From assembly GCA_937967505.1 (NCBI GenBank), contig CALCJM010000036.1, positions 60,533-124,532 on the forward strand: DNA of 64,000 bases, in the 5' to 3' direction. This document shows, piece by piece, positions 7,812 to 9,812 of this stretch (positions within the stretch are counted from its first letter, which is position 1; the number at the start of each line of letters is the position of its first letter). This DNA is from an uncultured Pirellulaceae bacterium (GTDB taxonomy: Bacteria; Planctomycetota; Planctomycetia; Pirellulales; Pirellulaceae). The notes beneath the pieces were generated by a model, which did not search any database, was not told the origin of the DNA, and saw nothing but the letters and a program-made list of their open reading frames with translations. Position numbers and translations under genes: made by a program.

Positions 7812-8993
7812 ATGGGGTTTCTTTCCGGCAGTGTCACCTTTCAACGTTATCGAGTTACCGACGATCCTACAGGGGAATTCGGGGCAGGTCACATCGAAAA
7901 ACTGGAACAGTATGTGATCGGTAAATCGCCAGGCAACATCTACGAGGAACCCGACGTTGGGTTTTCGGGTGGCGCTCACCTGTTGGACACCGACTTTGAC
8001 CTTGAAAAAAACATTATTGGCGAAGCGATGCACTTCGGGGTCCGAATTGACAGTTGCCAGATTCCTTCCCCCATCAAACGCGCATGGATGCATCAGGAAC
8101 TGGCCAGTTTTCTGAATGACAACCCTGGAGGCAAGCCATCCAAAACCCAACGAAGCGAAGCGAAAGAAGCTGTCGAAGATCGTTGCGCTCAGGAAGCCGA
8201 AAAGGGAAACTTCAAGAAACTGTCGGAGATCTCCGTACTGTGGGATGCCGTTTCCGATACGATTTTCCTAGGTGGGACTTCCGAAAAAACGAACGATACT
8301 GTATTGGGGTTGATGGAACGGGCGTTCGGCATCTCCGTTGAAAAAGTCTCTTGCGGGAAATTGGCGACCGAGATCGCCGACGAAATTGGCCGGAACGAGG
8401 GCCTGTTTGCCGCGACGCCCACCGCATTTGGAGAACACTCCTCCGGCAATGTTGTCTGGTGGAACGGAATGGGTGATAACTATGACTATCTGGGTAACGA
8501 ATTTTTGCTGTGGTTGTGGTGGCAATGGGAAACAGAATCCAACGTAATTTCTCTGGCAGATGGAAGCACCGTCTCCGGGATGTTCGCGCGCAGCCTGAGC
8601 CTTGACTGTCCCGAAGGCGAACACGGCAAGGAATCAATTTCATCCGAATCACCGGTCGCACTTCCCGAAGCAGCACTGGCGGTGAAGATGGGAAAACTGC
8701 CCCGCAAGGCCGGCCTCACACTGGTCCGCAACGATCTCAAATTTGACTTCGCGTTGCAAAGCGAAATGTTCTCCGTTGGCAGCGCCAGAATTGGCACGGC
8801 TGACGAATCTGCCACCATGTCACATGAGCTGACCGATCGAATCGCCCATGTCCGTGAGCTGGCCGACACGGCCGACTACCTTTTCCAGGCATTTTGCGAG
8901 GTTAGGCTTGGCAAAGACTGGGACATCGAACTCAAGAAACTACAGAAGTGGCTTGGTAGTGAAACGCCCACCAGACACCAAAAAGCGGCGTGA
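7812..8993 (+). CDS. RdgC-like protein (recombination-associated, putative)
   Basis: This 393-residue cytoplasmic protein has no signal peptide or membrane segment. Its layout resembles bacterial RdgC, a ring-shaped DNA-binding protein that restrains RecA. It has a short N-terminal beta-strand ('MGFLSGSVTFQRYRV'), a central charged helical stretch of the type 'PSKTQRSEAKEAVEDR', and then 'ISVLWDAVSDTIFLGGTSEKTNDTVLGLMERAFG', which parallels the RdgC segment where a 'W.D...' strand is followed by a helix. Planctomycete proteins of this design are, to my recollection, annotated as RdgC family. The remainder ('WLWWQWETESN') is distinctive. The ATG at 7812 is the only sensible start. It ends in TGA, so TGA is a normal stop next door to the selenoprotein gene. 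Function is inferred from remote similarity only. Confidence 0.55.
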   Translation: MGFLSGSVTFQRYRVTDDPTGEFGAGHIEKLEQYVIGKSPGNIYEEPDVGFSGGAHLLDTDFDLEKNIIGEAMHFGVRIDSCQIPSPIKRAWMHQELASFLNDNPGGKPSKTQRSEAKEAVEDRCAQEAEKGNFKKLSEISVLWDAVSDTIFLGGTSEKTNDTVLGLMERAFGISVEKVSCGKLATEIADEIGRNEGLFAATPTAFGEHSSGNVVWWNGMGDNYDYLGNEFLLWLWWQWETESNVISLADGSTVSGMFARSLSLDCPEGEHGKESISSESPVALPEAALAVKMGKLPRKAGLTLVRNDLKFDFALQSEMFSVGSARIGTADESATMSHELTDRIAHVRELADTADYLFQAFCEVRLGKDWDIELKKLQKWLGSETPTRHQKAA

Positions 8994-9076: not shown

Positions 9077-9082
9077 TATAAT
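9077..9082 (+). promoter_or_regulatory. candidate -10 box (TATAAT) for the selenoprotein gene
   Basis: A perfect TATAAT lies 78 bp before the ATG at 9161. The best upstream hexamer, TTTCCG or TTTTCC, is at 15-16 bp spacing and is a weak -35. It lies in the gap after the RdgC-like gene, so the downstream gene can be transcribed on its own. Confidence 0.5.
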
Positions 9083-9160: not shown

Positions 9161-9736
9161 ATGACAATGCTTAAGACTCTAATTCCCTTGGTGCTGTTGG
9201 TTGGCCTGCTACTGGTCGCCTGCGACCAACAGCCTGCCCAACAGGCACGGGTCATTCCCGAAACCGACAAAGCGTGGGTGACCTTCGCCGTTGAGGGCAT
9301 GACCTGACCCGGATGAGACAAATTAGTAGAGCAGGCTCTACTTGAGCTACCGGGTGTAGCTTCCGCAAATGCAGACAAATCGACCAGATCGGCGACTGTT
9401 GTTTACGACAAAACCATTCTGAAACCGGAAACCGTTACCAATCTGGGACGCTATCGATTTTCCGTGACGGCCACATCTGCCGACACTCTGGACGGCAGTG
9501 CCACTCAGGAGCAATCCGGTGGAGCGCTAGGTGCGCCTGGATCGCAGACCGACAACCGTGGTGACACCAATGGCTCGGGAACGACCAGCGCCACGGAATC
9601 TGCCCCACCACAGTTTGACTTGGGCGACTTCAGTACACTAAAACCGGCTGCCGCGACCGAGAGTGCCGAAGACGGGGCGACTGACCAAGAGTCGGCAGGC
9701 GAACTGCCGTTGTTGGGCGGCCCTGAAACGCAATAA
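9161..9736 (+). CDS. HMA-domain lipoprotein, predicted selenoprotein with U-x-x-U metal-binding motif
   Basis: Reading from the ATG at 9161 gives 191 residues if the in-frame TGA codons at 9305-9307 and 9314-9316 are translated. Residues 1-21 are a lipoprotein signal peptide ending 'LLLVAC', with Cys21 the lipidated residue. Residues ~38-105 match a heavy-metal-associated (HMA/MerP-type) domain: 'WVTFAVEGMT', then U49-P-G-U52, then 'DKLVEQALLELPGVASANA', 'SATVVYD' and 'LGRYRFSVTAT'. HMA domains have GMTCxxC here, and both cysteine positions are exactly the TGA codons. The rest is an acidic Ser/Thr/Gly/Gln-rich tail ending in TAA. A hairpin follows the TGAs (listed separately), a TATAAT box lies upstream and a terminator downstream. 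Expected role: extracytoplasmic, membrane-anchored binding or redox chemistry of soft metals such as Hg or Cu. A double-nonsense pseudogene is the main alternative. Confidence 0.85.
9308..9354 (+). promoter_or_regulatory. candidate bacterial SECIS stem-loop
   Basis: CCCGG (9308-9312), starting at the base after the first TGA, can pair with CCGGG (9350-9354) to close a larger loop. Inside it is a perfect 6-bp upper stem, GTAGAG (9326-9331) with CTCTAC (9336-9341), capped by CAGG. Bacterial SECIS elements are short hairpins about 16-37 nt beyond the UGA with a G near the start of the apical loop. The loop begins 24 nt after the first TGA and 15 nt after the second. The loop G is third, or first if the closing G-C pair opens. 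The fold was assessed by eye only. Confidence 0.6.
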
Positions 9737-9778
9737 TCTTGCACCGCAGGTATCAATTTGCAGAACTGACTTACCTGA

Positions 9779-9812
9779 CACTGACAGCCCACCGGGTGGT
9801 CAGTGTTTTTTT
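9779..9812 (+). terminator. rho-independent terminator
   Basis: CACTGAC (9779-9785) pairs with GTCAGTG (9799-9805), with further pairing inside the loop, and is followed by seven Ts (9806-9812). It sits 43 bp after the selenoprotein stop codon, closing that transcription unit before the oxidase gene. Confidence 0.85.

What the first reader, a model, noticed from the sequence alone, without database searches (positions are those of the whole stretch)
9161..9736. Predicted selenoprotein: an HMA-domain lipoprotein with both motif cysteines replaced by TGA (U-x-x-U)
Seen in the sequence: one frame from 9161 to 9736 is interrupted only by TGA at codons 49 and 52. Those are exactly the two Cys positions of the HMA motif GMTCxxC. 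The frame on both sides encodes an intact HMA domain, and the gene has a lipoprotein signal, a TATAAT box and a terminator. Established: bacterial selenoproteins often replace redox or metal-binding Cys with Sec at UGA, and MerP/HMA-type selenoproteins are known from metagenomes to my recollection. A double Sec (U-x-x-U) in one HMA motif would be unusual. Inference: a membrane-anchored, extracytoplasmic Sec protein for soft-metal binding or redox. Standard gene callers would give only the C-terminal scrap from 9464.
Basis: partly seen in the sequence, partly recalled or inferred. Interest (0 to 1): 0.95.

Follow-up and report, generated by a model that had tools for sequence, protein, structure and literature searches.

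The report
Double-selenocysteine metal-binding lipoprotein
This planctomycete gene has UGA stop codons at both metal-gripping positions of a small, likely membrane-anchored protein and is predicted to insert the rare amino acid selenocysteine at both, so it would likely grip soft metals such as mercury or copper with two selenium atoms, and an RNA hairpin beside the codons, preserved in distant relatives, would direct that insertion.

Summary
In detail: frame 9161-9736 is open except for TGA at codons 49 and 52, the two Cys positions of an HMA (heavy-metal-associated) motif. It is not a pseudogene or sequencing error: the window's genome and four related Pirellulaceae MAGs keep the same two UGAs (GMTUPGUD) at the same syntenic place, with purifying selection on both sides, and the genome encodes SelA, SelB, SelD and tRNA-Sec. 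Wider searches found 29 double-UGA HMA-type genes in 29 genomes: 5 U-x-x-U and 24 U-x-x-x-U. Directly 3' of the second UGA lie two tandem hairpins. Hairpin B (7 bp, CGGGU loop) shows strong compensatory change (49 double-change cells, 0/500 shuffles) and has the shape and distance of a bacterial SECIS for UGA2. It is 43-46 nt from UGA1, outside the 16-37 nt given for most bacterial SECIS; hairpin A in between may bridge the gap. Double-Sec HMA proteins are known (NCBIfam NF041115, UxxU), so this is a new variant of a known kind: a lipoprotein form far below that family's cut-off, a UxxxU form not found in the literature searched, and an unusual tandem SECIS. Soft-metal binding is the best-supported role but is untested.

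The parts
9161..9736 (+). Predicted double-selenocysteine HMA lipoprotein gene, 191 aa, TAA stop
   Evidence: four syntenic orthologues with the same two TGAs
9161..9223 (+). Lipoprotein signal peptide with lipobox LVAC (Cys21 = 9221-9223)
   Evidence: sequence; AlphaFold helix 7-21; lipidation itself inferred
9281..9436 (+). HMA domain (residues 41-92 in the Pfam match)
   Evidence: Pfam PF00403, 3.9e-13; predicted fold matches HMA7 and MerP, TM 0.86 normalised by the target
9305..9307 (+). UGA1, predicted Sec49
   Evidence: TGA in the window gene and all 4 orthologues
9314..9316 (+). UGA2, predicted Sec52
   Evidence: TGA in the window gene and all 4 orthologues
9325..9342 (+). Hairpin A: AGUAGAG-CAGG-CUCUACU, proposed bridging hairpin
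   Evidence: more stable than 995 of 1000 synonymous recodings
9344..9362 (+). Hairpin B: GAGCUAC-CGGGU-GUAGCUU, proposed SelB-binding SECIS hairpin; loop 9351-9355
   Evidence: covariation over 24 and 31 sequences, 0/500 shuffles on four of five measures
9437..9733 (+). C-terminal part: last HMA strand and a polar, low-confidence tail ending LPLLGGPETQ
9777..9812 (+). Intrinsic-terminator-like stem-loop and T run
   Evidence: z -4.3
9077..9082 (+). Literal TATAAT; promoter not supported by the scan
   Evidence: one search found no sigma-70-type site

Best explanation
The gene at 9161-9736 carries UGA at both metal-ligand positions of an HMA domain, is predicted to encode a lipid-anchored double-selenocysteine (Sec49-P-G-Sec52) protein, and would likely bind soft metal ions such as Hg(II) or Cu(I) outside the cytoplasmic membrane as a bis-selenolate. 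Shown: the frame, the two conserved UGAs, purifying selection on both sides, the Sec machinery in the genome, two tandem RNA hairpins 3' of UGA2 of which hairpin B covaries, and the HMA fold by profile and model. Inferred: SelB carrying Sec-tRNA docks on the CGGGU loop of hairpin B, and this one SECIS serves both UGAs, because hairpin A folds up the intervening RNA and brings UGA1 into range. Inferred: after export and lipidation at Cys21 the protein acts as a trap or relay for thiophilic metals and hands them to an efflux system, as a U-x-x-x-U relative inside a CusAB-type cluster suggests.
For: Conserved UGAs: window gene plus all 4 syntenic orthologues. pN/pS below 1 in all 10 pairs, before UGA1 (0.25-0.63) and in the 50 codons after UGA2 (0.26-0.43), though dS is saturated in many pairs. 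Machinery: selB 342.6 bits, selA 560.6, tRNA-Sec 70.3 with anticodon TCA, selD 269.5, all over cut-off. Co-occurrence: of the 18 double-Sec genomes known in the family, 15 have selA over cut-off and the other 3 (G138, G125, G140) have tRNA-Sec over cut-off. Hairpin B over 31 genes: 98.2% of 217 cells paired, 49 double-change cells, 0/500 shuffles, slid versions 17.5-49.3%; same over the 24 genes gathered before the pattern search (99.4%, 35 cells, 0/500). Against synonymous recodings, hairpin A is in the lowest 10% in 22 of 22 double-Sec genes not found by pattern (median 0.009) against 2 of 35 Cys-HMA controls (median 0.432); hairpin B in 21 of 22 against 7 of 35. Metal role: HMA profile and fold; the UxxxU gene of L166 lies between CusA/CzcA-type pieces and an RND adaptor with a heavy-metal-binding domain; a spacing of 2 or 3 residues suits chelation better than a CxxC redox motif (inference).
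Against: No Sec has been seen chemically. No metal gene lies next to the window gene (neighbours: a protein without Pfam match and an FAD oxidoreductase), and in the other Sec-HMA loci whose ORFs I listed I recognised no metal neighbours, mostly by eye, not by profile. L044 joins the UxxxU HMA domain to a DsbD_N-like stretch (21.2 bits, cut-off 25), which speaks for redox. UGA1 is 43-46 nt from the hairpin-B loop, outside the 16-37 nt of the published model. Hairpin B alone folds at only -7.0 to -7.3 in 9 UxxxU genes and -7.4 in L024, short of the model's -7.5. The number of pairs with a double change did not exceed the shuffles (4; 157/500, 223/500). The consensus fold contains hairpin B only; hairpin A shifts register between clades and is weaker in genes found by pattern: lowest 10% in 1 of 6 or 3 of 7. 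Folded from UGA1 on, the window RNA prefers a rival structure in which CCCGG between the UGAs pairs with the hairpin-B region.
Confidence: 0.7

Rival explanations
1. A genuine double-Sec protein whose Sec pair works as a redox couple (diselenide/diselenol), receiving electrons from a DsbD-type system, rather than as a metal ligand.
For: Most known selenoproteins are thought to be redox proteins (abstract of PMC9312934, search listing). L044 joins the UxxxU HMA domain to a DsbD_N-like stretch (21.2 bits) with a C-x4-C pair read in the sequence.
Against: The nearest solved structures by sequence and by fold are metal-transfer HMA domains. Spacing of two or three residues is tolerated. L166 sits in a metal-efflux cluster. 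The DsbD_N match is below its cut-off and seen in one genome.
Confidence: 0.22
2. A pseudogene or sequencing/assembly error: two Cys codons mutated or misread to TGA.
For: Two in-frame TGAs; a MAG-like genome of 183 contigs with 88.94% completeness.
Against: Same two TGAs in five separate genomes and double UGAs in 29 genes in all; purifying selection on both sides; hairpins that Cys relatives lack; full Sec machinery.
Confidence: 0.01
3. TGA is read as Trp or Cys by a general or suppressor code.
For: Some databases hold relatives with W at these positions (P0002, P0006, P0023), probably from gene callers using another code (inference).
Against: 11 of 34 window ORFs of at least 250 aa end in TGA; tRNA-Sec with anticodon TCA is present; relatives show Cys at these positions. 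Relatives with a real Trp codon there were not searched for.
Confidence: 0.02
4. A real double-Sec protein, but hairpin A is not a bridge: hairpin B serves UGA2, and UGA1 is read with help from hairpin A itself or from the rival fold of the UGA1-UGA2 stretch.
For: The hairpin-A loop lies 24 nt from UGA1 in the window, inside 16-37 nt; some A loops (GAAA, GTAA, AGTT) have a G in the first two places; a rival fold exists.
Against: Other A loops, the window's CAGG among them, do not, and no loop sequence is conserved; single-Sec relatives with UGA1 only (L129, L131) still keep hairpin B with its CGGGU loop.
Confidence: 0.3

Closest known systems
NCBIfam NF041115, UxxU metal-binding (seleno)protein (rows 'putative mercuric reductase', UxxU, in PMC9312934 and PMC13188914)
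   Same: HMA-like domain with both motif Cys replaced by Sec (U-x-x-U)
   Different: Window protein scores 36.2 bits against a cut-off of 95; it is a lipoprotein with a long polar tail; relatives include UxxxU; the SECIS of NF041115 members was not compared
NCBIfam NF045683, MerT/CopZ fusion-like heavy metal transport selenoprotein
   Same: HMA-type domain in a Sec protein named after metal transport
   Different: 22 bits against a cut-off of 375; no MerT part in the window protein
MerP (TIGR02052) and other HMA metallochaperones
   Same: HMA fold and GMTCxxC-type motif; MerP 1osd at TM 0.86 normalised by the target
   Different: 33 bits against a cut-off of 92.55; Sec for both Cys; lipid anchor; no mer gene beside it
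C-x-x-x-C HMA lipoproteins of Flavobacterium type (P0007, P0042)
   Same: Lipobox-like start, HMA domain, YDKT strand, 39 and 34% identity; Cys counterpart of the UxxxU spacing
   Different: Cys, not Sec; no long tail; only P0007 carries an organism name
Consensus bacterial SECIS (model as given in PMC13188914)
   Same: Hairpin B: 7-bp stem, 5-nt loop with G in the second position, 34 nt after UGA2
   Different: 43-46 nt from UGA1; preceded by a second hairpin; would serve two UGAs

Membership tests
Pfam PF00403 HMA | Score over the gathering cut-off (24.8) | tested here: met
   50 bits with C for U
Pfam PF00403 HMA | Ferredoxin-like HMA fold | tested here: met
   Residues 31-100 at block pLDDT above 90; best PDB hits are HMA7 and MerP; second helix short
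Bacterial selenoprotein | In-frame UGA conserved where homologues have Cys | tested here: met
   window gene and 4 of 4 orthologues; U and C forms among relatives
Bacterial selenoprotein | selA, selB, selC, selD in the genome | tested here: met
Bacterial selenoprotein | Sec found in the protein | not testable with these tools
   Needs 75Se or mass spectrometry
Consensus bacterial SECIS model | 3-9 nt loop, 4-16 bp stem, G in the first two loop positions | tested here: met
   Hairpin B, CGGGU loop, 7 bp
Consensus bacterial SECIS model | Loop 16-37 nt from the UGA: UGA2 | tested here: met
   34 nt
Consensus bacterial SECIS model | Loop 16-37 nt from the UGA: UGA1 | tested here: not met
   43 nt (UxxU) or 46 nt (UxxxU); the review says the range holds for most, not all, elements
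Consensus bacterial SECIS model | MFE of -7.5 kcal/mol or lower | tested here: inconclusive
   Window hairpin B alone -7.5, ten relatives -7.0 to -7.4; both window hairpins together -14.9
NCBIfam NF041115 UxxU_metal_bind | Score over the curated cut-off (95) | tested here: not met
   36.2 bits
NCBIfam NF045683 MerT_CopZ_Se | Score over the curated cut-off (375) | tested here: not met
   22 bits
MerP TIGR02052 | Score over the curated cut-off (92.55) | tested here: not met
   33 bits
Bacterial lipoprotein | Lipobox with Cys after a hydrophobic signal | tested here: met
   LVAC, read from the sequence; no dedicated predictor was run

The most novel reading that the evidence does not exclude
A tandem-hairpin bacterial SECIS: one SelB-binding hairpin (CGGGU loop) decodes two UGAs 9-12 nt apart because a second, bridging hairpin between UGA2 and it shortens the path, so that a UGA 43-46 nt away, beyond the 16-37 nt of the accepted model, is still read as Sec. 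It serves a planctomycete family of double-Sec (UxxU and UxxxU) metal-capturing lipoproteins that gene callers break up and a distance-limited SECIS search would misjudge.
Probability: 0.5. Interest if true: 0.76.

Novelty: new variant of a known kind. Interest (0 to 1): 0.64.

Why it matters
If right, these bacteria use selenium as a pair of metal ligands outside the cell membrane, which would be a chemically extreme soft-metal binder. The RNA would extend the rules by which bacteria recode UGA, since one SECIS would serve two codons and reach beyond the usual distance. It also shows a gene family that public annotation splits into scraps or reads with the wrong residue, and gives small, testable RNA and protein constructs.

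Tried and rejected
Pseudogene, sequencing error and a general TGA recoding were considered and rejected. Co-occurrence of Sec-HMA genes with selA is true but weak evidence inside the genus, because 23 of 28 genus genomes match selA anyway, 22 of them over cut-off. A covariance model was not built, because hairpin A changes register between clades. UxxxC members of another family (L098, L099, L101, L128) lack hairpin B (1-2 of 7 pairs), and show a CCUCG-GGU-CGAGG stretch nearer the UGA (read); they were left out of the hairpin-B counts, as were L034, L137 (UxxxC) and L132 (UxxC). One pattern hit, L151, is a chance match. G076 was listed with 2 TGA but is a Cys HMA with the TGAs after the domain, and the second TGA of L034 is its stop; both were dropped from the double-Sec count. 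L130 gave no motif. A first run of the Cys control had a wrong spacing and returned nothing; corrected. L159 (motif KMHU...) escapes the regular expression, so those count 28 double-Sec genes, not 29. Literature searches on heavy-metal-associated domain, Pirellulaceae with selenocysteine, HMA with lipoprotein, and UxxxU gave nothing relevant.

Full report
Observation. The frame 9161-9736 reads MTMLKTLIPLVLLVGLLLVAC...VTFAVEGMTUPGUDKLVEQALLELPGVASANADKSTRSATVVYDK... with TGA at codons 49 and 52 only and TAA at the end. With Cys at these places it matches Pfam HMA (50 bits, cut-off 24.8). An AlphaFold model (13-row alignment, mean pLDDT 72) is confident for residues 31-100, and its best matches in the PDB are copper and mercury HMA domains, TM 0.86 normalised by HMA7 (3dxs) and by MerP (1osd), 0.34-0.35 by the whole query. 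The C-terminal tail is low-confidence.

Organism and machinery. The window lies in a 5.03-Mb, 183-contig genome of 88.94% completeness. Its own record is not named; the four orthologous loci with names are uncultured Pirellulaceae MAGs, and their proteins are the same as those of the genus members G138, G129, G133 and G134. selB, selA, selD and tRNA-Sec are all over cut-off; ARAGORN calls tRNA-Sec with anticodon TCA. TGA is also an ordinary stop here: 11 of 34 window ORFs of at least 250 aa end in it.

Conservation. A search of 241 genomes of the family gave 80 with an HMA match. Reading the frames shows double-UGA HMA genes in 17 of the 241, and the later pattern search added an 18th, G077. 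Five are U-x-x-U (the window's G000 and G138, G129, G134, G133), all directly upstream of the same FAD oxidoreductase gene. Of the 28 genus genomes 25 have that gene; the other 20 show no HMA motif on the same strand within 1.5 kb upstream, one of them (L066) being cut after about 0.4 kb. Eleven further genus members carry a U-x-x-x-U form (GMVUGVAUTTAVEKQL-type) elsewhere; one search shows no genus genome with both forms. In all 10 pairs of the five UxxU genes pN/pS is below 1 before UGA1 (0.25-0.63) and in the 50 codons after UGA2 (0.26-0.43), less so in the tail (0.42-0.90); dS is saturated in many pairs.

Relatives with Sec or Cys. Order-, class- and phylum-wide searches (396, 397 and 392 genomes) added UxxxU genes in other families and in one genome of another class (L124-L127, L134, L150, L156-L160), single-Sec UxxxC forms (among them L098, L099, L101, L128), and Cys forms CxxxC and CxxC (L092, L095, L105, L111); further UxxxC forms (L129, L131, L034, L137) and a UxxC form (L132) are from the family. 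In all, 29 double-Sec genes are in hand from 29 genomes; the last seven (pattern-found) were judged HMA-type by motif and reading, only L160 of them also by profile. The class search used a pattern that demands CCGGGNGTA (10 of 397 genomes; reversed-pattern control 2 of 397; three of the ten already known, one a chance hit); the phylum search gave 1 of 392 and the UxxU pattern in the family 5 of 241 with control 0. In a protein database of 5.8 billion sequences the two profile searches listed 17 and 40 proteins, each scoring only about 8,000 candidates. Of the 21 I read from the second list, 13 are C-terminal scraps of the UxxU family, one is a W-x-x-C reading, and 7 are other Cys HMA proteins; no full-length Cys orthologue with the family's tail was among those read. 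Of the 12 read from the first list, two have W for U and one ends exactly before UGA1.

RNA. From UGA2 on, the sequences align without gaps. Hairpin B (columns 31-37 with 43-49, loop CGGGN) pairs in 99.4% of cells over 24 genes and 98.2% over 31, with 35 and 49 double-change cells and 0 of 500 shuffles reaching these; slid controls pair in 16-49%; the count of pairs with any double change (4) is not above the shuffles. Seven of the 31 were found by the pattern, which fixes the loop and part of the stem. Sequences are related, so cells are not independent events. RNAalifold chooses the same hairpin unprompted and no other. All 22 double-Sec genes not found by pattern have CCGGG and a GTA Val codon; of 35 Cys-HMA genes (25 loci, some from other phyla) 6 and 4 do, and 3 of the 35 reach 6 or 7 of the 7 pairs. 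Hairpin A lies between UGA2 and B. Its best register differs: 35 in 9 of the genus's 11 UxxxU genes and in L026, 38 in 9 of the 15 genes from outside the genus, 41 or 43 in the other four UxxU genes. In two sets that I formed by register, L048 and L086 being kept in the first although their best register is 38, it keeps 96.4% and 90.5% of cells paired. A test not selected by register compares each gene with synonymous recodings: hairpin A is in the lowest 10% in 22 of 22 double-Sec genes, in 2 of 35 Cys controls, and in 1 of 6 pattern-found genes (3 of 7 with 1000 recodings); hairpin B in 21 of 22, 7 of 35 and 6 of 6. In the window gene hairpin A beats 995 of 1000 recodings and hairpin B 937 of 1000, while the whole 57-nt stretch is unremarkable (450 of 1000 fold at least as well).

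SECIS rules. The review PMC13188914 (passages read) gives, for most bacterial elements, a 3-9 nt loop with G in the first two places, 4-16 bp, 16-37 nt from the UGA and MFE of at most -7.5, and says that some elements fall outside. Hairpin B meets the shape and the distance to UGA2 (34 nt), not to UGA1 (43 or 46 nt). L129 and L131 have only UGA1 and keep hairpin B, so a UGA 46 nt away must be served (inference). Hairpin A folded would bring it near. A rival fold from UGA1 onward exists in the window RNA.

Function. Metal binding is favoured: HMA fold, nearest profiles MerTP, UxxU_metal_bind, CopZ and MerP, and in G761 a UxxxU gene stands between a CusA/CzcA-type RND fragment at the contig's start, a His-rich lipoprotein and a Cys-rich ORF on one side and an RND adaptor with a heavy-metal-binding domain and a second CusA/CzcA-type pump on the other. 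The two RND pieces as fetched are partial and under that family's cut-off (237 and 631 of 701 bits); the adaptor is over the cut-off of the general RND-adaptor family and under that of CusB. Against: the window gene has no such neighbours, I recognised none at the other loci listed, and L044 joins HMA-UxxxU to a DsbD_N-like part below cut-off.

Known or new. Double-Sec HMA-type proteins are known: NF041115 in NCBIfam and the UxxU rows of PMC9312934 and PMC13188914 (passages); MerP is listed as a rare selenoprotein in PMC2398784 (passages). Planctomycete selenoproteins were reported in PMC4807772 (passages), whose main text holds neither 'heavy metal' nor 'HMA'; its supplementary list was not seen. 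PMC12013277 (passages) has no hit for planctomycetes, heavy metal or UxxU in its main text. A full-text search for UxxxU gave only two unrelated papers, one for Pirellulaceae with selenocysteine none; subscription papers are mostly outside that library. The window protein and the 14 other rows of A1 all match NF041115 at E below 0.001; the window protein is 59 bits under its cut-off. I therefore file it as a new variant of a known kind.

Noticed in passing
L019:304-2523 (own genome, C83): SelD is the C-terminal half of a 739-aa protein whose N-terminal half looks, by eye, like an FAD-dependent NADH dehydrogenase.
   Followed up: no
L098, L099, L101, L128: UxxxC HMA lipoproteins of another family lack hairpin B and carry a CCUCG-GGU-CGAGG stretch close to the single UGA: an apparent relocation of the SECIS.
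   Followed up: partly
L044:1000-2004 / L138 (G201): UxxxU HMA domain joined to a DsbD_N-like stretch (21.2 bits, cut-off 25) with a C-x4-C pair.
   Followed up: partly
L166 (G761): UxxxU lipoprotein gene inside a CusA/CzcA-type RND cluster with a His-rich lipoprotein and a Cys-rich ORF.
   Followed up: partly
L160 (G802): UxxxU HMA domain at the C-terminus of a protein with hydrophobic stretches, in another planctomycete class; NCBIfam matches cover the HMA part only.
   Followed up: partly
P0002, P0006, P0010, P0023 and C-terminal scraps such as P0009, P0019: Public protein sets hold this family as W-readings or as scraps cut at the UGAs.
   Followed up: yes
window 7812-8993: Neighbour of the UxxU gene, 393 aa, without any Pfam match at E 0.001.
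   Followed up: no
L034/L137 (G044): Two nearby UxxxC HMA lipoprotein genes (GMSUGGSC and GMWULFRC) on the same strand.
   Followed up: no
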